A stretch of 64,000 nt of DNA from an uncultured Flavobacteriales bacterium (GTDB taxonomy: Bacteria > Bacteroidota > Bacteroidia > Flavobacteriales_D > Parvicellaceae), in NCBI GenBank assembly GCA_943788755.1, contig CALSRM010000001.1, positions 124,001 through 188,000 of the forward strand, written 5' to 3'. The position numbers and the translations under genes are program-made. How positions within the stretch are numbered: position 1 is the stretch's first letter; every line of letters begins with the position of its first letter. The notes beneath the pieces were generated by a model, which was given only the letters and a program-made list of their open reading frames with translations, made no database searches and was not told the origin of the DNA. This document shows, in pieces, positions 12,201 to 22,811 of the stretch.

Positions 12201-12595
12201 CCGTTACTTGATCTTAGATAGGCCGGGATTAATAATTCTCCAATCGAATCAGTAAGATAGTTTAAAAATTCAATTTTGAAAGAGAATTTATTATTGTAAA
12301 TTTCTCCTGTTTGAAACCACATTAGATCATTCCCTTCTACAATTTTATAAATTAATGTTCCTTTTAATTTCTTGTCATTCCATTTTGTTTTAAAGCTATA
12401 ACCATCGTAACATGTTATTCCGTCTTGAGTTCCAAACCACATATAGCCTTTACTATCTTTCAAACAACTTACTACACTTTGACTGGGAAGACCTTCTCTT
12501 TCGGTATAATTTTTAAACCGATAGTTGTTTTGCCCAAAGAAAGTTTGGACCAGAAGAATAAATAATATTGCTAAGAGTAACCTGGAGCATTTCAT
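9287..12595 (-). CDS. Two-component-regulator propeller sensor with SpoIIE PP2C phosphatase output
   Basis: A 1102-residue transmembrane sensor. After a signal peptide (cleavage near GQNNY) comes a long beta-propeller of two-component-regulator repeats, beginning GLPSQSVVSCLKDSKGYMWFGTQDG. A Y_Y_Y domain (YAYQLKGLENEWSYA, LAPGSYTFEVKAAN) follows at about 690-780. One membrane segment is at about 786-808, then a coiled coil (TKELAEKHTESEKNRLL), then a SpoIIE/PP2C phosphatase with SGDFYW near 893, DSTGHGVPGA and TDGFQDQ. Such proteins sense an extracytoplasmic cue and dephosphorylate an anti-anti-sigma factor; no such partner is in the window. The gene sits directly next to the left end of the integrative element. 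Confidence 0.9.
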   Translation of the reverse strand: MKCSRLLLAILFILLVQTFFGQNNYRFKNYTEREGLPSQSVVSCLKDSKGYMWFGTQDGITCYDGYSFKTKWNDKKLKGTLIYKIVEGNDLMWFQTGEIYNNKFSFKIEFLNYLTDSIGELLIPAYLRSSNGLKFTNVIADIKQINSDHLLYTACNKLFINNLKTTTLDSIEFKDVLNIDLSDTIAFRFIKDVEKPTLFFEKGIIEFNPDLKGSKFIEFNFANEKENLKNYTRHNSDTLLFISNLNNFYFYVESAQEYVYWFTDNSLRFDKLELSKMTYSKKRELFMVVDGSALINYDLSKKRKVNLKDMIMILDPSKNHQQQPSIADIHYDGNNCFWAVSIDRGVFKLNYKHQKIKTFEITKKNYEELSILNVVQIDSSLLLSTNFGLLEYQIKNDSLFPFSFKVKNLPGSMLSKKDEMGSFYYDFEKRILWYGNNKFLVKYNIDNKTGEFINEVENYCVDLVVQDNKTIWISDLGHGLLNKSIFSDSLKYFKYGESDYPDQTNVISALKLKDQFLFISTNTAGLVKLNTKTLKFSTIGSDYEGTTLGLDIVNDSIWVSTWSNGLLCFDANTGLLIDSIKKENGLPSNATSMIKIDVLGNLWATSSFGLIQFDKNSRKIKVFNKKHGLKKVDLLSSTSKISENQNGDFFMAYNNVIYSWNPLDFINDTTLPNVYFDNIYFNYKNSQEKIEILNNQYQKLKNNYALTYNQNNITFEFSAIHFSSERNIEYAYQLKGLENEWSYANERSIEYSRLAPGSYTFEVKAANSDGIWSKPISFSFNITPPFWRTWWFIPLCIFILCLLIYFMLRIRTRQLKSRQIELEKTVTRRTKELAEKHTESEKNRLLVEEKNKEISDSINYAERIQRSFLATDELLNANLNEYFVFFQPREAVSGDFYWASKLNNGDFAIVNADSTGHGVPGAIMSILNICSIEEAIKEGSTAPNEIFNKTRKFIIERLKKDGSSEGGKDGMDASIICFDFENSKFSYTAAQNPIWVIRNGKLTEIKPEKMPLGKHDKDKIPFVGGEFEIQQGDQIYTLTDGFQDQFGGPKGKKFMVKKMREFVLSISHLPMEEQHQKIREVFSNWKGDIEQVDDVCVIGIKI

Positions 12596-12744
12596 TCAAC
12601 TAAAATAATGAATTAACTTTATTTGATTTTTCTTACTTAAACTTTTTAACAGTAAAAAGAAAATTCATTGAGATGGTTTCTAAGCATATTTCTTTTCTTC
12701 TGAATTCTATTAGGGTTTATTCTTCTGGAAATTCCCATAATTTT

Positions 12745-12819
12745 TTCACTAAACAAAAAGACACAAAAAAAGCCCAATCTATAGTAGATTGAGCTTTAAA
12801 AGTCGGGGTGGCAGGATTC
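12745..12819. repeat. Distal attachment-site repeat (tRNA-Pro 3' fragment)
   Basis: All 75 bases are identical to 22679-22753. It contains the last 17 nt of tRNA-Pro and the tRNA terminator hairpin but no tRNA body. Sequence to its left is chromosomal, to its right is the element. Confidence 0.93.
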
Positions 12820-12973
12820 TCTCTGCTATCCCTGTATCTCTTATTTGTATTAACTTTTAGCTTTTAATTAACCTACTTGTTCACTAAAAATGCCACTAAA
12901 ACTCATCTTCTCCGTTATTATCAAATATAATAATTTTGTTGTTAATTTATTATTTAATGGCTATTGTTTTAGT
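12820..12973. other. Element left end, non-coding
   Basis: There is no gene between the left attachment repeat and the first element gene. The stretch holds one GTTCACTA site (12879-12886), the same motif that occurs three times beside the integrase gene, and AT-rich DNA. It probably carries an integrase arm site and the 3' end of the leftmost transcript. Confidence 0.5.
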
Positions 12974-13372
12974 TTAATTATAATTTACAATTTTTATTCT
13001 AGTAGCAATTGAGTATGACCCATCCATAGGGTAAATATAAACTACTTCTTCTTCTTCATAGTTAAATATAAATAAATACTTATTTCCTTGATCACTTATA
13101 GTATAATAAACATCTTGTTCTACTTCATTAATAGTACTATCAATATAGTATGTTGATGTAAGATTATTATTATATGTTGAATGCTCAAATGATGTCTTTA
13201 AATCATTAAAAACAAATCCACTTATAAAGTTTGTATCATATCTACAATCTGAATATAATCCAGTTATATCATCACGAAAACATATTTCATATTCTGAGGT
13301 ATATACTCTTAATTGTGCTACACCTACCATCCCTAAGAATAGCAGTGCAACAGTGCTGAATATCTTTTTCAT
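12974..13372 (-). CDS. Small secreted protein of unknown function (element cargo)
   Basis: A 132-residue protein with a strong signal peptide (MKKIFSTVALLFLGMVGVAQ). The mature part is acidic and Tyr-rich, with two cysteines (in YEICFRDD and YSDCRYD) that could form a disulfide, and predicted beta strands such as YYTISDQGNKYLFIFNY. No family is recognised. It is the leftmost gene of the integrative element. It has the same orientation as the secreted protease gene but is separated from it by 279 bp in which I see no gene or clear signal, so co-transcription is not evident. Confidence 0.6.
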   Translation of the reverse strand: MKKIFSTVALLFLGMVGVAQLRVYTSEYEICFRDDITGLYSDCRYDTNFISGFVFNDLKTSFEHSTYNNNLTSTYYIDSTINEVEQDVYYTISDQGNKYLFIFNYEEEEVVYIYPMDGSYSIATRIKIVNYN

Positions 13373-13651
13373 AATTTTTGTTTTTAAAAGGTTATTAGGT
13401 TAATGTGCTAATATTAATAAGGAACATAATTAGAGTGAGAATATTTGGAGAAGAAAAGGAAGGAGAAATCCTAAGGGGGCATTTAGTGGCTTTGAGATTG
13501 TCTTAGAGAAGTAGGGGGTTGAGATGTTTGGCTGATGATTTAGAGCCGAGGGAATTACTAAGAAGATGTTGAACAAATTAAATTATGGAAGGCTAATTAT
13601 TTATGTGATTAGAGGTCAATTTACCTATGGTTACTTTATCATGTACTGGTT

Positions 13652-15130
13652 TTACCTAGCCTCTATTATGTATACAAATTCTTTAATGAATTTTACTTGT
13701 TCAGGTAAATTTAGACCAGATATAGCATTATCTGAACTAAATTTAAAATCCTTTTCCAAGGACATTGAAAGCATATTAAGGTAATTACTTTTAATTGAAT
13801 ATGAGGCATTTTCAGCACCTATGTGTTTTGCATTTATAACACCAATAATTTGACCATTTGAATTAAACATAGGACCACCACTATTGCCAGCTTGTACGGG
13901 AATAGACACTTGATAGGTAGTAATGTCTCCCTGAAAACCTGACTTTGAGCTAATTATTCCATTGGTAAGTTTAATCTCATCCCCCATGGAGGCTCTTAAA
14001 GGGTATCCTAGAGCAAAAACATTCTCTCCTACATCTGAGATGTTAAAGTTAAAATTATAAGGCAAGGTCCCTAATGTGGTGAATTTACTATCTGTTATTT
14101 TTAAAATTGCTAAGTCATTGTTAGCATCCTTAATGGTAACAACAGCTTTATACTCTTTATTAAAGTCACCTTTAATACCCTTAATTATTATATCTGATGA
14201 GTTTCCTATTACATGGTAGTTTGTCGCTATATATCCGTTAGATGAAATCGCAAACCCAGTACCAGAACTAAAAAGGCTTTTGGATCCGTTAATGGCAATA
14301 TTTTCAGAAGTAGGGAATAATTTTATATAAAGAACACTTTCTGCATCGTTATTCTGGTTGAATATGGTTTTTAGTCCACCCTGAACACATGTAACGTATA
14401 CATCATGATTTGTAGTTTTGTTTGCCATATACCAAGTGGCTTTATACAAGTTGGCAGTAGCAGTACTTGTTATTTTAGCTTTTATATCTCCTTCATTCCA
14501 AACATAAGAATCACCTCCAGATAGGTATATTATTTGAAGCGATCCATAATTGTTAACTAGCGCTAGTTTGTATTTGTTGTTACTATTTGTTGATTCATAA
14601 ATCCCTTCAGAATCTGACATTCCATTCTCTTTCCACATTTCTTTAATAGAAGCTTCTGTTAATAAAGTCTTTGGCGTAAATGGTATTTTTGGATTTTCAA
14701 TTCTGACGCCTTCCCATTTAAATCCATTATATATATCTTCCTTAATATCAAAATAAGTAGCTCCAGGGGGAACCCTTGGGAATACTAATACAAACGCTAT
14801 AATTTCCTTTGATTGATAAGTGTACTTTGTTCCAAACGTTGCTTTTTTAGAGTTAAATTGTTTATCAATTAACTCAATACTCTTAGCTCTATAACGTTTT
14901 CCAGAAACTTTATCTATTATGTAAGTATTATGAGAAAACTGAGCCCAAAGTGAATAAGTGTAATTATTATACATACTTATTGAAACCCTAGTGTCGTTAT
15001 TATAGCACATGACACTATTAACCGTGGTGCTTGGGTAACTTTTATAGACATTTGGCCCAATAGTGATGGCTTGAGAAAAATTTGTAAATGACAAAATACA
15101 GAAGCTTAAAACAAGGATGAACTTTACCAT
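13652..15130 (-). CDS. Secreted trypsin-like serine protease (S1C/DegP-like) in the element
   Basis: The protein has 492 residues and a signal peptide ending near FSQA. Residues 21-280 form a large, unrecognised, beta-rich N-terminal region. The trypsin-like domain occupies about 285-455 with all three catalytic residues visible: His306 (ATNYHVIG), Asp339 (ANNDLAILK) and Ser417 (AGNSGGPMF). There is no PDZ domain after it, unlike DegP/HtrA. The short tail ends in FIKEFVYIIEAR. An exported protease is unusual cargo for a 10-kb element; it may act on the host envelope or on competing cells or phage (inference). It reads leftward, away from the two small genes. Confidence 0.82.
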   Translation of the reverse strand: MVKFILVLSFCILSFTNFSQAITIGPNVYKSYPSTTVNSVMCYNNDTRVSISMYNNYTYSLWAQFSHNTYIIDKVSGKRYRAKSIELIDKQFNSKKATFGTKYTYQSKEIIAFVLVFPRVPPGATYFDIKEDIYNGFKWEGVRIENPKIPFTPKTLLTEASIKEMWKENGMSDSEGIYESTNSNNKYKLALVNNYGSLQIIYLSGGDSYVWNEGDIKAKITSTATANLYKATWYMANKTTNHDVYVTCVQGGLKTIFNQNNDAESVLYIKLFPTSENIAINGSKSLFSSGTGFAISSNGYIATNYHVIGNSSDIIIKGIKGDFNKEYKAVVTIKDANNDLAILKITDSKFTTLGTLPYNFNFNISDVGENVFALGYPLRASMGDEIKLTNGIISSKSGFQGDITTYQVSIPVQAGNSGGPMFNSNGQIIGVINAKHIGAENASYSIKSNYLNMLSMSLEKDFKFSSDNAISGLNLPEQVKFIKEFVYIIEAR

Positions 15131-15304: not shown

Positions 15305-15547
15305 TTAATTCAAACTAAATAAGTAATAGGGATAAGGTCTTTTATTAACTACATACTGTAACTCTAGTTTTTTATTAATAGCTATAAACTGTACTTCATA
15401 TATAGCACCTTTCTTCAATAGTTTAAGGTTGTATTTGCTAGTAACATTAAATGGGCAGTGTTTTCTCCTTAAGCCACTAGGCGTGCTTACTAAAAGGCTA
15501 TTAAAATCACATTGTCTTCTTAGGGCAAGTAATAAATCATTATTCAT
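15305..15547 (-). CDS. Hypothetical protein, 80 residues (element cargo)
   Basis: A short basic protein starting MNNDLLLALRRQCDFNSLLV and carrying RRKHCPFNVTSKYNLKLLKK, then GAIYEVQFIAINKKLELQYV. The last part looks like a small beta sheet. No family is recognised. It follows the 120-residue gene on the same strand, but an intrinsic terminator (15572-15600) lies between them, so it needs read-through or its own promoter. It has a sensible ATG and a codon composition like its neighbours; still, a gene this short may be spurious. Confidence 0.45.
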   Translation of the reverse strand: MNNDLLLALRRQCDFNSLLVSTPSGLRRKHCPFNVTSKYNLKLLKKGAIYEVQFIAINKKLELQYVVNKRPYPYYLFSLN

Positions 15548-15571
15548 ATTAAGTTTTTAATTGTTTATGGA

Positions 15572-15600
15572 TAAAAAAAAGGGACTGCCGAAACAGTCCC
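15572..15600 (-). terminator. Intrinsic terminator after the 120-residue gene
   Basis: On the minus strand the perfect 7-bp stem GGGACTG / CAGTCCC around a TTTCGG loop is followed by eight T. It lies nine bases after the stop of the gene at 15609. Confidence 0.85.
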
Positions 15601-15608
15601 TAATTATA

Positions 15609-15971
15609 CTATGCCAATTGCTTGGACTTTACATCTTGAAAGACTTCACTTTCAAGCTCTTTGTTTTCTTGCTCATCTTCAGTGAGGTATTCAAACCTGT
15701 GATTGAGAGTGATTACTTCTTCCGTTTCAGGAATAGTGTACTCATAAGGATCGCACTTAACCTTACTAATCTTACCATCTAGTTCTTTGCCTATTAGTTT
15801 TTGACAAACTGCTTCACTAAATGTTGATGTTACAGAGCTTCTGAGTGCCGTGGCATAATATTTACCTGTCTCAGTGCTTTTAACCATTTCCAAGTCTCCT
15901 TCAAGGATTAAAACATGGAAAATTTCCCCTCCAGAATTCTGACGAGGAACAAAATCTACAATTGTTACCAT
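15609..15971 (-). CDS. Conserved-looking small cytosolic protein, element-borne
   Basis: A 120-residue acidic protein. The N-terminal half alternates strands (MVTIVDFVPRQN, GEIFHVLILEGDLEMVKS) and contains KYYATALRSSVTSTFSEAVC; the C-terminal half has KISKVKCDPYEYTIPETEEV and a charged, disordered end. The strand pattern could be a small beta barrel of OB type, which would suit a nucleic-acid-binding accessory factor, but I cannot name the family and this is inference. It diverges from the helicase gene across a 189-bp region full of inverted repeats, so it may be the element's regulator or replication accessory protein. Confidence 0.6.
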   Translation of the reverse strand: MVTIVDFVPRQNSGGEIFHVLILEGDLEMVKSTETGKYYATALRSSVTSTFSEAVCQKLIGKELDGKISKVKCDPYEYTIPETEEVITLNHRFEYLTEDEQENKELESEVFQDVKSKQLA

Positions 15972-16160: not shown

Positions 16161-19100
16161 GTGACAGACAAACTCATATCATCAGTAAACAATTGGAAAT
16201 CATTAAAGGCTTCTATTGATTTAGAAAGCAAGAAGGTAAAAGGAGATGCTTTTGAATTACTGACAAAGCTCTACTTTAAAGTAGCTCCTAAATTTCAGGA
16301 CTTATATGATGATGTTTGGCTACTTTCAGAACTACCATCTAAGGTGCTGGAAGAATTAGGTATTCCTTCTCACGATTTAGGAATAGACTTAATACTAAGA
16401 GCTGGAAAGGAGTATCACGCAGTACAATGTAAATACCATTCTGATAAGAGTAAATCAGTCACCTTTTCAGAAGTAGCTACTTTCATCTCTTTAGTAGAGA
16501 GTAATGATAAGATTACACAAGGGTATATCTGTTCTACTGCAGAATTAACATCCAAAAACTTTAACAAGCTTAATCTTTCAGACATGGTTCTGCTTATGTC
16601 AGATACATGGCAAGGGTTAGATAGTGAGTTTTTTAGTAGTGCAAAAGCACTTTTAAAAGGGAAGAAAAAGAGCCTACTACCATTTAAGCCAAGAGCACAC
16701 CAAACTAAGGCATTAAAACAAGCAGATAAGTACTTCAATAAAGAGAAACACACTAGAGGGAAGTTAATATTCCCATGTGGAGCTGGTAAAAGTTTAACAG
16801 GCTTTTGGTTAACACAAAAGTTAGCCTCAAAATCCACACTTATAGCAGTACCTAGTTTATCACTTGTAAAACAGACTTTAGAAGTCTACTTAAGAGAGAT
16901 AGTTGCCCACAAGAAGAAAGTTAAGTGGTTGTGTATCTGTTCTGATGAAGGAATAGGCAAAAATGATGATGTAGTTGTTTATACGCAAGATTTAGGCGTA
17001 CCCTGTGTTACAGATCCCGAGTACATAGAGAATTGGTTAGCGGAAAATGTAAATGAAGAGAAGGTTGTATTTACTACTTACCAAAGTGGTAGAATAATAG
17101 CAGAGATTTCTAAGAAGTTAGCTTTCACTTTTGATGTAGGGATTTTTGATGAAGCGCATAAAACAGTAGGCTCTGACAAGAAGCTATTCAGTCATTTACT
17201 TTTTAGTAAGAACATCTCTATAGCTAAAAGAATATTCATGACTGCTACTGAAAGGTTTTATGAAGGTTCTAAGGATGATATTATCTCTATGGACGATGAA
17301 GATATCTACGGAGATACGTTTGCTTTAATGAGCTTTAAGGAAGCTATAGAGCTTCAATTACTTACAGATTATAAAGTAATAACCATAGACATACAGAAGT
17401 CTGAAATAGCAGACTTTATTAGGGATAATAACCTAGTACAGTTAAATGACAAATGGAAAAAAGAAACAGAAGCTAGGTCTTTAGCATCTATGTTAGCTTT
17501 ACGTAAAGCAATGAAGCGTTTTAATATTAAAAACGCAGTATCATTTCATTCATCTATTGAAAAAGCAAGAAGAAACAAAGACTTACAGCAGTACATTACG
17601 GATACTTATGATTACCAACCTATAGATACCTATACCGTATCAGGAAAAGATGCTACTACCAAAAGGAATGACATAGTACAAGAGTTTGCTAAGTCAGATA
17701 AAGCTTTAATTACCAATGCACGTTGTTTAACAGAAGGTGTTGATGTACCAAACATAGATTGTATTGTTTTTGCAGACCCTAGAAAGAGTAAAGTAGACAT
17801 AGTTCAAGCATTGGGTAGAGCGTTAAGAAAAAAAGAAGGGAAAGATTGGGGTTATGTAATACTGCCTGTTATATATGATAACACAACCAATGAGATAGAT
17901 AATGACAACTTCAATGAAATACTACGTGTTGTTAGAGGTTTAGCAGCCAACGATGAAAGAATTATAGAGCATTTTAAGGATAAAGGAGAGATAAATACAA
18001 AAGCTAAAAAAGAGGTTGAAGAGCAGTTTAATTTTGAAGTGTTATCTGAATACATGGATGAAGGGGAACTCTCCAAACAACTGCAGATAAAGGTTTGGGA
18101 GAAGCTTTCTAAGTTTAATTGGATGGAGTTTGAGGAGGCGAGAGGTTTTGTTCGCCAGCTTAAACTTAAAAATCAGGCTGAATGGCGTGAGTTTAGTAAG
18201 TCCGATAAAAGACCATTTAATATGCCCACGAGACCACATGTTAATTATGTGAATGCGGGATGGGTAAGTTTAGGAGATTGGCTTGGGACTGGAACTGTTG
18301 CCACCCAAAATAAGTCATACAAAAGCTTTAAAGCGGCAAAAGACTGCATTCAGAAACTTAAAATAGGTTCAGCCAAAGACTGGTATTCATATGCAGATTC
18401 AAATGATAAACCAAAAGATATTCCATATCACCCAAATAGAGTCTACAAGAATGAAGGTTGGCTTAACTGGGGAGATTTTCTTGGTACTGGACTAGTTGCA
18501 AATTATAAAAGGAAATATGCTTCTTTTGATGAGGTGAAAAAGTATGCTTTGAATAATAAAATCACTAGTTCTTCAGAATGGAGGAAACACGGAAAAGAAG
18601 GGAAGTTACCATTTAATATTCCAGTTGCTATATGGGTTACTTATAAAGATGAAGGATGGAGCGGTTGGGGTGACTTTCTTGGTACCGGAATAATCGCAAC
18701 CAGCAATAGAGTCTTTCTTTCGTACAAAGAAGCAAAACACTTTGCTAGAAAACAAAAATTCAAAAAAATAAAAGAATGGTGGGATTTTGTGAAGTCCGAT
18801 AAGAAACCGGAAACAATTCCATATAATCCTTTAAGAACCTATAAGGGTAAGGGTTGGAATGGATGGGATGATTTTCTTGGAACTGAAGTTTTACATAACA
18901 AAAATAGAAAATTTAGGTCGTTTAATGAGGCAAGAGAATTTGCTCATAGCTTAAGCCTTGGTAAAAGAGCAGATTGGACTGAATACACAAAATATAATGA
19001 ATTGCCTTTTGATATCCCTGTTGGAGTTTATGGTGTGTATAAAGATAAAGGATGGATTAGCTGGGGAGATTTTCTTGGTACTGGAAAGGTGGCAGACAAA

Positions 19101-19286
19101 GATAAAGTCTTTTTGTCATTTAATTTGGCTAGAGAAATAGTGGTTAAACTGAAGCTTGCTAGTAGCAAGAAGTGGAAGGAATATATCAAATCTGGAAAAA
19201 GACCGAAAAACATACCCTCCGCTCCAAATGTTGTTTATAAAAACAAAGGTTGGAAAGGATGGGGAGACTTTTTAGGTAATGAGTAG
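16161..19286 (+). CDS. Mrr-type nuclease / SF2 helicase with six 66-residue C-terminal repeats
   Basis: A 1041-residue multidomain protein with a GTG start at 16161; the next in-frame Met is past residue 140, inside the nuclease domain. Residues 25-150: a restriction-endonuclease-like (PD-(D/E)xK, Mrr/HSDR) domain with GDAFELL, Asp75 in GIDLIL and Gln89-Cys-Lys91. Residues 170-620: SF2 helicase with Walker A CGAGKS (206-211), DEAH (330-333), TAT (361-363), LTEGVDVP (523-530) and QALGRALRK (549-557). Residues 655-1041: six repeats with the anchor GWxxWGDFLGTG, with Trp at 701, 767, 833, 899, 965 and 1031, exactly 66 apart. They resemble the integrase/helicase-associated repeats thought to bind DNA. 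The stop overlaps the next gene by 8 nt. Confidence 0.88.
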   Translation: MTDKLISSVNNWKSLKASIDLESKKVKGDAFELLTKLYFKVAPKFQDLYDDVWLLSELPSKVLEELGIPSHDLGIDLILRAGKEYHAVQCKYHSDKSKSVTFSEVATFISLVESNDKITQGYICSTAELTSKNFNKLNLSDMVLLMSDTWQGLDSEFFSSAKALLKGKKKSLLPFKPRAHQTKALKQADKYFNKEKHTRGKLIFPCGAGKSLTGFWLTQKLASKSTLIAVPSLSLVKQTLEVYLREIVAHKKKVKWLCICSDEGIGKNDDVVVYTQDLGVPCVTDPEYIENWLAENVNEEKVVFTTYQSGRIIAEISKKLAFTFDVGIFDEAHKTVGSDKKLFSHLLFSKNISIAKRIFMTATERFYEGSKDDIISMDDEDIYGDTFALMSFKEAIELQLLTDYKVITIDIQKSEIADFIRDNNLVQLNDKWKKETEARSLASMLALRKAMKRFNIKNAVSFHSSIEKARRNKDLQQYITDTYDYQPIDTYTVSGKDATTKRNDIVQEFAKSDKALITNARCLTEGVDVPNIDCIVFADPRKSKVDIVQALGRALRKKEGKDWGYVILPVIYDNTTNEIDNDNFNEILRVVRGLAANDERIIEHFKDKGEINTKAKKEVEEQFNFEVLSEYMDEGELSKQLQIKVWEKLSKFNWMEFEEARGFVRQLKLKNQAEWREFSKSDKRPFNMPTRPHVNYVNAGWVSLGDWLGTGTVATQNKSYKSFKAAKDCIQKLKIGSAKDWYSYADSNDKPKDIPYHPNRVYKNEGWLNWGDFLGTGLVANYKRKYASFDEVKKYALNNKITSSSEWRKHGKEGKLPFNIPVAIWVTYKDEGWSGWGDFLGTGIIATSNRVFLSYKEAKHFARKQKFKKIKEWWDFVKSDKKPETIPYNPLRTYKGKGWNGWDDFLGTEVLHNKNRKFRSFNEAREFAHSLSLGKRADWTEYTKYNELPFDIPVGVYGVYKDKGWISWGDFLGTGKVADKDKVFLSFNLAREIVVKLKLASSKKWKEYIKSGKRPKNIPSAPNVVYKNKGWKGWGDFLGNE
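18123..19283 (+). repeat. Six tandem 198-bp coding repeats in the helicase gene
   Basis: The six units have a strict 198-bp period, set by the anchor Trp codons at 18261, 18459, 18657, 18855, 19053 and 19251. The units are well diverged in sequence but never change length. Each unit follows the pattern SFxEAxxFAxxLxLxSxxEW, then P-x-x-IP and Y-x-x-x-GW-x-x-WGDFLGTG. Confidence 0.9.
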
Positions 19287-20505
19287 ATATAATTTTTGTA
19301 TACCATCAAATGTTTCCAGAACTCAAATTTTGAGTGATTTAGAGGATTCTAAACTATGGAAAGTATATTATTTTCTAAATCTGCTTTATGAAGTACCTGT
19401 AAAGAAGCAGAAAGTTTATGATAAATATTTGATAAATGGTTGGGTGCAATTACACAGCGTTCTCTTGAAAAAAGGCATAGGAAATGACTATAAAGAAATT
19501 ATTGATTTTTTAATAGGAAAAGGTATAGTTTTAAAAAGAGAGGATAAAAAGTATAAAGTAAAAAAATATAGTTCAAGTTTTGGTTTGTCAGAAGAATATA
19601 GTTTAGACGTAAAGGCGGTTGAAGCAAATGTGCCAACTAAAGTATTTAATAGGTTGAAAACCACTAGAGCAAAAGGAAGATTTGAAATTCCTTATTTATG
19701 GAAATGGCTCTATGATCCCAAGTTTACAATAGACATTTCAGGCGCATTACAACAGTTGATTAACGAGCAATTGGACAATAAGTACAAAGAGAGGTTGTTA
19801 AGGTATAAATTGTACTCTATTATGAACAAGTCATTTTATTTTACAAGAGATACTAGCGGAAAACGATTACATACCAATATTTCACATTTGAACAAAGATT
19901 ACAAAAAGCACCTTCGTTATGATGGTCAAAAATTGGTAGAAATAGACATAGAGAATAGTCAACCTTTTTTTAGCTTGTTAATTCTGCAAAAGTTTTTTGG
20001 CAAGTCTTTAAATCAGCTTAAAGAATTGAAAGGTGAATATAATGATGTCCCGTTGTATATAAGTTTGGTAGAGAGTGGCCTTATTTATGAGCACATGGAT
20101 ATGGAGTACATGTCTTCAAAATATGAAAAACCTACCTTGGAATTTAAGGATATGCGAGATAAGATAAAAAATCGCTTTTGGAAAGTGTTGTTCTCTAAAG
20201 AAGAATCATTTAAAGGCTTGAGAAAAGTCTTTTCAGAGGCATTTCCTAATGTTTATAATGCATTCATTCCTAAAACAAAGAGAGGACTTAACTTTGCAGA
20301 GCAGCTGCAAAGAGCAGAGTCAAATATTATATTAGATAAAGTTTGCAAAAATATAAACAGGGAATTTCCTGAATGTCCGATGTACACAGTTCACGATAGC
20401 ATACTTACAATTTCAGAATATGCAGACGATGTTAAAGCAATATTAAAAGCGGAAATATTTAAAACAATAGCAACAGTACCTAACTTACACACTAAACAAT
20501 TATAA
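19279..20505 (+). CDS. Divergent family-A (T7-like) polymerase palm-domain protein
   Basis: A 408-residue protein whose ATG overlaps the helicase stop by 8 nt, so the two are translationally coupled. The N-terminal 120 residues look like a winged-helix-type region. In the C-terminal half I see the layout of a PolA/T7 RNAP palm: a motif A candidate, LVEIDIENSQPFF with Asp223; an O-helix-like RDKIKNRFWKVLF (293-305) with Arg/Lys; SEAFPNVYNAF and EQLQRAESNIIL (341-352); and a motif C candidate TVHDSI with His372-Asp373. Asp223 and Asp373 would be the metal ligands. The length is half that of a PolA core, with no exonuclease domain. The identity is my inference from motif order; a structural match would be needed to settle it. 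Confidence 0.6.
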   Translation: MSRYNFCIPSNVSRTQILSDLEDSKLWKVYYFLNLLYEVPVKKQKVYDKYLINGWVQLHSVLLKKGIGNDYKEIIDFLIGKGIVLKREDKKYKVKKYSSSFGLSEEYSLDVKAVEANVPTKVFNRLKTTRAKGRFEIPYLWKWLYDPKFTIDISGALQQLINEQLDNKYKERLLRYKLYSIMNKSFYFTRDTSGKRLHTNISHLNKDYKKHLRYDGQKLVEIDIENSQPFFSLLILQKFFGKSLNQLKELKGEYNDVPLYISLVESGLIYEHMDMEYMSSKYEKPTLEFKDMRDKIKNRFWKVLFSKEESFKGLRKVFSEAFPNVYNAFIPKTKRGLNFAEQLQRAESNIILDKVCKNINREFPECPMYTVHDSILTISEYADDVKAILKAEIFKTIATVPNLHTKQL

Positions 20506-20585: not shown

Positions 20586-21371
20586 TTAGGTAAATTGCAA
20601 AATAATTGTGGCAATTACGTCAAAGTCCATACAAGCGTCAAATTCTATTTTAGGGCTGAACATTCCTTTTTTCTCTCTTATTCTAATTAGTTGTGGATTA
20701 ACTGAGCCCGTGTGACCTTCTATTCCCTTTTGCACCCCTATCCATAGTAGATCATTTTTATCTGATAACCCAATACTCAACCTCTTCTTTCCTTTTATGA
20801 TAAACCCTTCTTTAGAAATAATAATGTCATCACCATATCTAATTTGACCTTTTTCCTCAAGTTCTCTCTTGTAGAGATCATATCTTTGGTCAAAACTAGC
20901 TTTTCTTATATAATTTCCAATTCTGAATAATTCTTCTACTTTTCTAATTTTTTCTTTTTGCCAGGAGTTGGAAGATGACATGGCAATTATTATGTCCTCT
21001 GGATATTTGTTTGAATAGTTAAAACCTATTTGCAAACTAGAAAGCCTAGAAGTGATTAAGTTGTAGGTGCTAGAACTGCTAGCTATAGTAAGCCTAGAGA
21101 TGTCTGTAATAGAATATGACGTTCCTCTATATGATATCTTATTATGAGTTACAGTAAGTCCTTCAAATTGCCAAGGGTTATTTTCTGTAGGTGGAGTAAC
21201 ATAGTTGTTTGGTGATGAGCCTCTTAGGTTGTTAATTATGGTCTTAGCTCCTCTTTTTAGTGATTCTACTTTCTCATTAAGCTTGTGTTTTGAATCTAAC
21301 CACTCTCCACAATGCTTACATTTTAAAGCATCATCTTTTATTTCTTCTTTGCAAAATTTACAAGTTGCCAT
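20586..21371 (-). CDS. Zinc-ribbon protein of unknown function (element cargo)
   Basis: The 261-residue protein starts with a zinc ribbon: Cys4-x2-Cys7 and Cys18-x2-Cys21 (CKHCGEW). A polar linker (about 25-65) leads to a beta-rich region (NPWQFEGLTVTHNKISYRG, DISRLTIASSSS), reminiscent of PH-like domains, and a second similar segment GDDIIISKEGFIIKGKKRLSI near 175-210. No signal peptide or membrane segment. It lies 51 bp downstream of the integrase stop on the same strand, so it may be co-transcribed with the integrase. Function unknown; a DNA- or membrane-binding adaptor is possible. Confidence 0.65.
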   Translation of the reverse strand: MATCKFCKEEIKDDALKCKHCGEWLDSKHKLNEKVESLKRGAKTIINNLRGSSPNNYVTPPTENNPWQFEGLTVTHNKISYRGTSYSITDISRLTIASSSSTYNLITSRLSSLQIGFNYSNKYPEDIIIAMSSSNSWQKEKIRKVEELFRIGNYIRKASFDQRYDLYKRELEEKGQIRYGDDIIISKEGFIIKGKKRLSIGLSDKNDLLWIGVQKGIEGHTGSVNPQLIRIREKKGMFSPKIEFDACMDFDVIATIILQFT

Positions 21372-21422: not shown

Positions 21423-22598
21423 TCAGACAATTAATTTAGCAAAATCCTGAGATACCTTCTCGTTCATTATCTGACCATAAATTTGTGTACTTCTTATGCT
21501 GTTATGTCCCAATACTTTTTGTAGCGTTTCCAATGGCACTCCATTAGCTAGTGCTATAGTGGTGGCAAAGGTGTGTCTTCCAGAGTGGTAGCTTAAGTTC
21601 TTGTTTAGGTTTACTAGTTTTGCTAGTTTTTTTAAGTTCCTATTAATTGCTTGGTTACTATATATGGGAAAAGTCTCTTTGTAATGTGTTAAATACCTAT
21701 TCAATATAGCTATTGCTTTCGGAAGCAAAGGAACTTCCTCTTTAGTTCCAGTTTTTTGTCTTGTAGTACTCAACCATAGGTTGTCATCAAAGCCTACTAT
21801 TATATTGCTCTTAGTAAGGTTCTTAACTTCTATGTAAGATAGTCCTGTATAACATGCTAAAAGAAAAAAGTCCCTTGTGTTATTTAAGGTTTTATCTTGG
21901 AAAATAGCAGATTCTATGGTTTGCAATTCATGTTTGTTTAAATACTTGGGTAATACCTTTTTGAATTTAATTTTGTATGCTGATAAAGGGTTGTATTTAA
22001 GGCATTCTATTCTTATTCCGTAGTTGAGTATAGCTTTTAGTCTTTGGAGGTGTTTCATGGCTCCATTTTGCGTGCAAGAGGTATTTGTTTTTAGGTATTT
22101 TTCAAAGTAAACGGCAAACTTCATTGAAATACTTTCTAATGGTATTTCTTTTCTTTTGTAATCCTTTATCAAATACTTTTCTAACGCCCTATAAGTATAT
22201 CTGTAGTTCTTTAAGCTTCCTTCAGCTAGTTCTTTATCCATGTCTTTAATAAATACCTCTGTCAGTTGTATAATTCCATTTACTTTAATGTGTTTACCAA
22301 AATAAATATCTTTTAAAAGTTCAGCAGAAATAGGAGAGGAGTTCTTTCCTTTAAACTCAAAGTATAAATCTTTGAGTTTTTTATCTAGTTCATCTAAGGA
22401 TTGGTTTAAACTATCAGAGTATTCAGCTTTTGGGGATAACCTTTTGAACTCATTGTTCCAAAGTCCTTCTTTAGCTCTGATTTTTGTGGAAAACTCTGCT
22501 ATAGTTTTTCCAATTTTAATTCTGCAGTAAATCGGAATCCCTTTTTTACTCTTTCTGCCATTTCTTGGAATAAATGAAATTACACATGTGTTAACCAT
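21423..22598 (-). CDS. IntDOT-like tyrosine recombinase (element integrase)
   Basis: A 391-residue integrase with an arm-binding N-terminus (1-105), a core-binding SAM-like domain (105-210) and a catalytic domain (215-391). Catalytic residues visible: Lys282 (RQKTG), His338-x2-Arg341 (SYHSGRHTF), His365 (LGHNS) and nucleophile Tyr374 (STQIYGQ). The first catalytic Arg, normally in TGLR, is Ser254 (TGLSYIEV). The same substitution is known in IntDOT of Bacteroides CTnDOT, which marks this as the Bacteroidetes conjugative-transposon branch. It starts 81 bp from the attachment repeat, beside three GTTCACTA sites that may be arm sites or control its own promoter. Confidence 0.92.
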   Translation of the reverse strand: MVNTCVISFIPRNGRKSKKGIPIYCRIKIGKTIAEFSTKIRAKEGLWNNEFKRLSPKAEYSDSLNQSLDELDKKLKDLYFEFKGKNSSPISAELLKDIYFGKHIKVNGIIQLTEVFIKDMDKELAEGSLKNYRYTYRALEKYLIKDYKRKEIPLESISMKFAVYFEKYLKTNTSCTQNGAMKHLQRLKAILNYGIRIECLKYNPLSAYKIKFKKVLPKYLNKHELQTIESAIFQDKTLNNTRDFFLLACYTGLSYIEVKNLTKSNIIVGFDDNLWLSTTRQKTGTKEEVPLLPKAIAILNRYLTHYKETFPIYSNQAINRNLKKLAKLVNLNKNLSYHSGRHTFATTIALANGVPLETLQKVLGHNSIRSTQIYGQIMNEKVSQDFAKLIV

Positions 22599-22638: not shown

Positions 22639-22685
22639 GTTCACTAATATGTTCACTAGATGAACAAAATAGAGCTTGTTCACTA
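22639..22685. promoter_or_regulatory. Three GTTCACTA repeats, candidate integrase arm sites
   Basis: GTTCACTA occurs at 22639-22646, 22651-22658 and 22678-22685, between the integrase start and the attachment repeat, with the last copy reaching into it. A fourth copy is near the other end (12879-12886). Position and repetition fit arm-type binding sites of a tyrosine recombinase; the integrase promoter must also lie here. Confidence 0.5.
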
Positions 22686-22753
22686 AACAAAAAGACACAA
22701 AAAAAGCCCAATCTATAGTAGATTGAGCTTTAAAAGTCGGGGTGGCAGGATTC
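22679..22753. repeat. Proximal attachment-site repeat at the intact tRNA-Pro
   Basis: Identical over 75 bp to 12745-12819. It spans the last 17 nt of tRNA-Pro and its terminator. Because the repeat carries both, tRNA synthesis and termination survive the insertion. Confidence 0.93.
22698..22733 (-). terminator. Intrinsic terminator of the tRNA-Ser/tRNA-Pro operon
   Basis: On the minus strand AAAGCTCAATCTA pairs with TAGATTGGGCTTT (one G-U) around a CTA loop and ends in seven T. A second copy is stranded in the distal repeat (12764-12799). Confidence 0.88.
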
Positions 22754-22811
22754 GAACCTGCGATCTCCTGGTCCCAAACCAGGCGCCTTGACCGGACTGG
22801 GCCACACCCCG
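22737..22811 (-). tRNA. tRNA-Pro (TGG anticodon)
   Basis: A 75-nt cloverleaf: the acceptor stem CGGGGTG pairs with CACCCCG, discriminator A; the anticodon loop reads TTTGGGA with anticodon TGG; the T arm is GCAGGTTCGAATCCTGC. CCA is not encoded. It lies 63 nt after tRNA-Ser(GCT), and the shared terminator follows. The 3' 17 nt are duplicated at the far end of the integrative element, so this gene is its integration target. Confidence 0.95.

What the first reader, a model, noticed from the sequence alone, without database searches (positions are those of the whole stretch)
16161..20505. Coupled nuclease-helicase and polymerase-palm proteins: candidate undescribed system
An Mrr-type nuclease/SF2 helicase (1041 aa) and a 408-aa protein with PolA/T7-like motif A and C candidates overlap by 8 nt inside a mobile element. 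One reading is a replication module for the excised element; another is an anti-phage system in which DNA is processed by nuclease, helicase and a polymerase-like protein. The combination is not one I recognise from described defence systems.
Basis: partly seen in the sequence, partly recalled or inferred. Interest (0 to 1): 0.78.

Follow-up and report, generated by a model that had tools for sequence, protein, structure and literature searches.

The report
Mobile element: polymerase plus restriction cargo
The two overlapping genes are not a new paired system: one is a known kind of mobile-element DNA polymerase, the other a stand-alone restriction-like DNA-cutting motor that happens to sit beside it inside a 9.9-kb element inserted at a tRNA gene; the cutter's unusual repeat domain is the interesting part.

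Summary
In detail: ORF1 (16161-19286, 1041 aa) and ORF2 (19279-20505, 408 aa) overlap by 8 nt. They lie in a 9,934-bp tyrosine-recombinase element bounded by 78-bp repeats at tRNA-Pro; a congener carries the empty site. ORF2 does have a polymerase fold: with 41 relatives AlphaFold gives pLDDT 89.8, and residues 131-408 match Pol theta, Pol I and T7 DNA polymerase (Z up to 16.4). Motifs and context fit the TV-Pol family (Iyer 2008), proposed primase-polymerases of mobile elements. ORF1 residues 22-608 are the Mrr nuclease plus SF2 motor of Type ISP restriction enzymes (LlaBIII, E 1.7e-59), but methyltransferase and target-recognition domain are missing, replaced by about six 66-aa repeats resembling Pfam INT_rpt. 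The pair is not conserved. None of 67 other TV-Pol loci has an ORF1-like gene next door, and none of three ORF1 homologues has an adjacent TV-Pol; one rides 7 kb from a different TV-Pol in another element. Best reading: TV-Pol element backbone plus a restriction-type cargo gene. ORF1's motor half is under purifying selection while its repeats diverge quickly, as expected of a recognition domain.

The parts
12742..12819 (.). left attachment repeat (attL), 78 bp
   Evidence: 99% identical direct repeat of 22676-22753; single copy at the empty site of congener G491
12974..13372 (-). 132-aa cargo ORF, unknown function
   Evidence: 520 bp around it are 97% identical to a segment beside the ORF1 orthologue in congener G427
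13652..15130 (-). 492-aa trypsin/HtrA-like serine protease, cargo
   Evidence: Trypsin_2 E 2.9e-23
15305..15547 (-). p80, small backbone gene
   Evidence: weak homologues beside p120 in TV-Pol locus L113, in L026 and in other integrative elements
15609..15971 (-). p120, conserved element-backbone protein, 120 aa; candidate single-strand-binding subunit (conjecture)
   Evidence: homologues in 7 TV-Pol loci (window included) and in 9 further islands with DUF3871, AAA_24 and p80; no known domain
16161..19286 (+). ORF1: Mrr nuclease + SF2 motor + INT_rpt-like repeat array, 1041 aa, GTG start
   Evidence: Pfam, PADLOC; LlaBIII 4xqk over 22-608, E 1.7e-59; repeats about 652-1041, period 198 nt
18084..19283 (+). 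about six tandem 66-aa repeats (xxFxxAxxxxxxLxLxxxxeWxxyxxsxxxPxxIPxxPxxxYkxxGWxxWgDFLGxx)
   Evidence: 198-bp spaced direct repeats, unit alignment; a relative's repeats hit PF14882 INT_rpt
19279..20505 (+). ORF2: TV-Pol-type family-A polymerase, 408 aa
   Evidence: AlphaFold pLDDT 89.8; Z 16.4 to Pol theta over 137-408; conserved motifs
20586..21371 (-). 261-aa zinc-ribbon protein, cargo or accessory
   Evidence: weak Zn_ribbon hit; no homologue in the other loci
21423..22598 (-). tyrosine recombinase (integrase)
   Evidence: Phage_integrase E 3e-18
22676..22753 (.). right attachment repeat (attR), overlapping the tRNA-Pro 3' end
22736..22811 (-). tRNA-Pro(TGG), integration target

Best explanation
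The region is a 9.9-kb tyrosine-recombinase integrative element at tRNA-Pro built from two unrelated modules. Backbone: integrase, TV-Pol (ORF2) and the small proteins p120 and p80. After excision the TV-Pol is inferred to prime and/or copy the circular element, with host or element helpers. Cargo: ORF1, a self-contained restriction-type enzyme. Its SF2 motor and Mrr nuclease are those of Type ISP restriction enzymes; its C-terminal repeats are inferred to bind target DNA in place of the missing methyltransferase and target-recognition domain, after which the motor would translocate on duplex DNA and the nuclease cut incoming DNA. The 8-nt overlap gives shared expression, not a joint mechanism. 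Shown: domains, predicted fold, element ends, empty site, lack of pair conservation. Inferred: priming/replication by ORF2, restriction by ORF1, DNA recognition by the repeats.
For: Element: 78-bp att repeats and empty site in G491. ORF2: polymerase fold, motifs, published TV-Pol features and mobile context. TV-Pol loci carry a tyrosine recombinase in 23 of 50 cellular loci against 0 of 20 control regions, Fisher p 1.2e-4, and p120 in 7. In huge-phage-type loci L069, L070 and L023 the TV-Pol overlaps a second gene; the L069 copy is a PF00476 DNA polymerase (E 2.8e-18), which fits a replication or priming role. ORF1: LlaBIII match over 22-608; homologues at 69% (G427), 58% (G676) and a decayed copy (G582), none adjacent to a TV-Pol. 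Motor half 527/639 identical to G427 with dN/dS about 0.06, repeats only 186/391 identical, the pattern of a conserved engine with a changing recognition part. R-M-type genes lie near 17 of 50 TV-Pol cellular loci against 0 of 20 controls, so restriction cargo is usual there.
Against: No activity is shown for either protein. dS between the ORF1 copies is near saturation, so dN/dS is approximate. The R-M enrichment used queries drawn from the same loci. ORF1 rides in TV-Pol elements in both congeners (this one and the 17.5-kb tRNA-Cys element of G427), so loose co-travel exists and a functional link is not fully excluded. No cognate methyltransferase lies in the element, so self-protection is unexplained. 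Direct sequence homology of ORF2 to published TV-Pol members was not tested.
Confidence: 0.74

Rival explanations
1. Replication module: ORF1 supplies helicase (and nickase) and ORF2 the primase/polymerase to copy the excised circle, like Cch2 with CCPol-MP in SCCmec.
For: Translational coupling; TV-Pols are often linked to helicases and the CCPol-MP-Cch2 complex is established.
Against: The helicases in those cases are D5/Cch2-type, whereas ORF1 is a Type ISP-like restriction motor. Other TV-Pol loci lack ORF1 and ORF1 persists without a TV-Pol (G676). TV-Pols were reported to lack conserved links to nucleases.
Confidence: 0.08
2. Joint anti-phage system in which ORF1 cuts and unwinds invading DNA and ORF2 synthesises DNA on it.
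For: Overlapping genes in a mobile element; in G427 the ORF1 orthologue also lies in a TV-Pol element.
Against: No conserved pairing; TV-Pols occur broadly in phages, including huge phages, where a host-defence role is unlikely; no PADLOC system matches.
Confidence: 0.06
3. ORF1 is an anti-plasmid or element-competition nuclease that protects the element's niche rather than the host.
For: Carried by elements in tRNA hotspots and in a tandem array in G427; fast-diverging repeats.
Against: A stand-alone copy without a detected element exists in G676.
Confidence: 0.12

Closest known systems
TV-Pol family (Iyer, Abhiman and Aravind 2008, PMC2579912)
   Same: Minimal family-A polymerase domain without exonuclease, conserved hairpin Arg, two palm Asp, RxxxK in the fingers; mobile-element and phage context with lambda-type integrase.
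   Different: An overlapping upstream Mrr/SF2 gene; the paper states that TV-Pols lack conserved nuclease links. Here the link is not conserved either.
CCPol-MP / PolA-SSB primases of SCCmec and Bacillota (PMC7581432, PMC10061031)
   Same: Family-A polymerase in an excisable element; a small conserved protein (p120) might play the SSB role.
   Different: No Cch-type helicase beside it, p120 not adjacent to ORF2 and not shown to be an OB fold; tyrosine rather than large serine recombinase.
Type ISP restriction-modification enzymes (LlaBIII, LlaGI; PMC4666363)
   Same: Mrr nuclease and SF2 motor aligned over residues 22-608 of ORF1.
   Different: No methyltransferase or target-recognition domain; tandem repeats instead.
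PF14882 INT_rpt (Integrase repeat unit) proteins
   Same: Tandem ~60-66-aa repeats of the same type, elsewhere fused to IS66 transposase/RNase H-like domains or to an apparent HNH nuclease.
   Different: Here fused to a Mrr-SF2 restriction motor; the ORF1 repeats themselves miss the Pfam cut-off.

Membership tests
TV-Pol | RRM-like palm with two catalytic aspartates | tested here: met
   D223 invariant and D373 at least 90% conserved in 41 sequences; fold match over 131-408, Z up to 16.4
TV-Pol | beta-hairpin with an absolutely conserved arginine before the palm | tested here: met
   R196 invariant in 41 sequences, next to predicted strand 197-199
TV-Pol | fingers with RxxxK motif | tested here: met
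   R293-x3-K297; K297 invariant in 41, R293 invariant in the 7 closer sequences
TV-Pol | bi-helical thumb | tested here: inconclusive
   helices 153-163 and 168-182 precede the hairpin; not inspected residue by residue
TV-Pol | occurrence in transposons/viruses with recombinase | tested here: met
   tyrosine recombinase in 23/50 cellular loci; also plasmid and phage records
TV-Pol | sequence homology to published members | not tested
   member sequences are not held in the text of the paper
TV-Pol | primase and DNA polymerase activity | not testable with these tools
   needs biochemistry
Type ISP R-M enzyme | Mrr-family nuclease | tested here: met
   PF13156 E 1.7e-16
Type ISP R-M enzyme | SF2 helicase-like ATPase | tested here: met
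Type ISP R-M enzyme | N6-methyltransferase | tested here: not met
   no methyltransferase match in ORF1; LlaBIII match ends at 608
Type ISP R-M enzyme | target-recognition domain | tested here: not met
   residues about 652-1041 are tandem repeats
PolA-SSB primase | adjacent OB-fold SSB subunit | tested here: inconclusive
PolA-SSB primase | adjacent Cch/D5-type helicase | tested here: not met
   the only helicase-like gene in the element is ORF1
Known anti-phage system (PADLOC) | complete match to a described system | tested here: not met
   only partial Type IIG/I R-M and PbeA matches of ORF1; ORF2 only a marginal hit
INT_rpt (PF14882) | repeat scores over the Pfam cut-off | tested here: inconclusive
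   ORF1 does not reach it; relative L205 does, 36.9 against 26.5 bits

The most novel reading that the evidence does not exclude
ORF1 founds a class of single-chain, methyltransferase-less restriction motors whose target is read by a tandem array of INT_rpt-like repeats, a modular DNA-recognition domain that is also fused to transposases and nucleases.
Probability: 0.3. Interest if true: 0.68.

Novelty: new variant of a known kind. Interest (0 to 1): 0.42.

Why it matters
It removes a candidate two-gene system, places the unannotated 408-aa protein (no Pfam, NCBIfam or PHROG hit) in a recognised polymerase family with a confident model, and defines the element precisely. What remains interesting is the repeat array on a Type ISP-like motor: if it reads DNA sequence, restriction enzymes have exchanged a fixed recognition domain for a modular repeat domain, and how such an enzyme spares its own genome becomes a testable question.

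Tried and rejected
Folding ORF2 without an alignment gave no usable model (pLDDT 33). An alignment of 20 relatives was too divergent for pattern search, so a 7-sequence subset was used. hhalign of the ORF2 family against host Pol I aligned only motif C with low probability, so membership rests on fold and motifs. A profile of p120 found no PDB relative, so its SSB role is conjecture. The conserved-pair hypothesis was tested and dropped. A new polymerase family was considered and rejected in favour of TV-Pol. No paper on INT_rpt function or DUF3871 elements was found in the held library.

Full report
ORF1 (16161-19286) and ORF2 (19279-20505) exist on the + strand and share 8 nt. ORF1 has an Mrr_cat_2 nuclease, a ResIII/Helicase_C motor and a C-terminal array of repeats 198 nt apart. 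ORF2 matches no curated family.

Both genes lie in an integrative element. A 78-bp direct repeat at 12742-12819 and 22676-22753 (99% identical) overlaps the 3' end of tRNA-Pro(TGG), and a tyrosine recombinase lies just inside the right copy. Congener G491 carries the left flank (100% over the searched segment) and the right flank (98%) joined over a single 78-bp copy, so the element is 9,934 bp and absent there. G427 lacks it at this tRNA too.

ORF2 is a polymerase by predicted fold. Relatives are scattered in Bacteroidota (12 of 395 genomes), huge uncultured phages, a Hymenobacter plasmid, IMG/VR contigs, and a few other phyla (Planctomycetota and Ignavibacteriota). The alignment shows GRxHT, DIxNSQP, RxxxK and HDS motifs in the order of family-A polymerases. 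AlphaFold with 41 sequences gives mean pLDDT 89.8 and pTM 0.87. Foldseek's best PDB hits are Taq/Bst Pol I (E about 1e-5) and VIA-align gives Z 14.7-16.4 over residues 131-408 to Pol theta, T7 DNA polymerase, Pol I and yeast mitochondrial RNA polymerase. These are the features Iyer et al. used to define TV-Pols. The only biochemically studied member known to the authors of PMC7581432, CCPol of SCCmec, is a polymerase that primes de novo with its partner MP.

TV-Pols here are mobile-element genes. A tyrosine recombinase lies in 23 of 50 cellular loci and in 0 of 20 random regions of the same genomes. Window protein p120 (15609-15971) has homologues in six other TV-Pol loci and in nine islands without a nearby TV-Pol; all nine of those carry DUF3871, seven carry p80 and six a Sak4-like AAA_24 ATPase. 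p120 and p80 are therefore element backbone. Calling p120 a single-strand-binding partner of ORF2 is conjecture.

ORF1 is a Type ISP-like enzyme without its methyltransferase. Residues 22-608 align with LlaBIII (E 1.7e-59) and 174-608 with LlaGI (1.2e-47), and most listed plasmid hits over this segment are annotated as Type ISP enzymes. Beyond about residue 650 there are only repeats. Related repeats occur in proteins with IS66 transposase and RNase H-like domains and in a phage protein whose N-terminal part reads like an HNH nuclease; one relative scores above the cut-off of PF14882 INT_rpt. This spread over DNA-acting enzymes suggests a DNA-binding module (inference).

The pair is not conserved. 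Among 68 TV-Pol loci only the window has an Mrr-SF2 gene next to the TV-Pol. ORF1 has a 69% orthologue in G427, a 58% homologue with at least eight repeats in G676, and a decayed copy in G582; none is adjacent to a TV-Pol, and in G676 neither a TV-Pol nor a tyrosine recombinase was found on the 35.5-kb contig. In G427 it lies in a 17.5-kb element at tRNA-Cys that has its own integrase and a very different TV-Pol 7 kb away on the opposite strand, in tandem with a second TV-Pol element. ORF1 is thus cargo that TV-Pol elements can carry, not a fixed partner.

ORF1 evolves like a restriction enzyme. Between window and G427 the nuclease-motor half is 527/639 identical with dN/dS about 0.06, while the repeats are 186/391 identical and differ in number. 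Synonymous change is near saturation, so the ratio is approximate. Restriction-type genes are common near TV-Pols (17 of 50 against 0 of 20, with queries drawn from the same loci), in line with the 2008 remark that TV-Pol elements sit in hotspots with restriction-modification operons.

Mechanism. For ORF2: excision by the integrase, then priming and/or copying of the circle by the TV-Pol (inferred from family and context). For ORF1: repeats bind DNA, the SF2 motor translocates, the nuclease cuts (inferred from Type ISP). How the host is spared without a methyltransferase is open; possibilities are recognition of a modification or feature absent from the host, or avoidance of the site.

Verdict: the proposed two-gene system is not supported. 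ORF2 is a new member of a known family; ORF1 is a new variant of a known kind.

Noticed in passing
L069:7137-8426, L070:7167-8456, L023:10633-11919: In huge-phage-type contigs the TV-Pol gene overlaps by 4 nt a second gene; the L069 copy is a PF00476 DNA polymerase. A primase-polymerase pair is a possible reading.
   Followed up: partly
L191-L199; window 15305-15971: A conserved module p120 / Sak4-like AAA_24 / DUF3871 / p80 recurs in Bacteroidota islands, four of nine with a tyrosine recombinase within the fetched 20 kb, some beside C5 methyltransferases and other restriction-type genes. No description was found in the held library.
   Followed up: partly
G427:C4 212448-238456 (L124, L125): Two tandem elements at tRNA-Cys, each with integrase, HTH gene and TV-Pol; the second TV-Pol gene is broken into separate frames. 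Three copies of the core GAGGTCTCTGCCGGA mark the ends.
   Followed up: yes
window 12586-12720: Just left of attL a stretch resembles integrase coding sequence (77% over 53 nt to 22116-22168) and is also present in relatives G491 and G485: probable scar of an older element.
   Followed up: no
L130:5392-8751, L202, L203, L206: INT_rpt-like repeats in proteins with an IS66 transposase domain, three of the four also with an RNase_H_2 domain: an unusual transposase architecture.
   Followed up: partly
L083:9899-11959 (same as L026): A TV-Pol with a C-terminal extension carrying GIY-YIG and NUMOD1 (homing-endonuclease type) sequence in a Tenacibaculum.
   Followed up: no
window 12873-13392: A 520-bp segment with a 132-aa ORF is 97% identical to G427 although ORF1 is only 79% identical in DNA: recent exchange between elements at different tRNA sites.
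   Followed up: no
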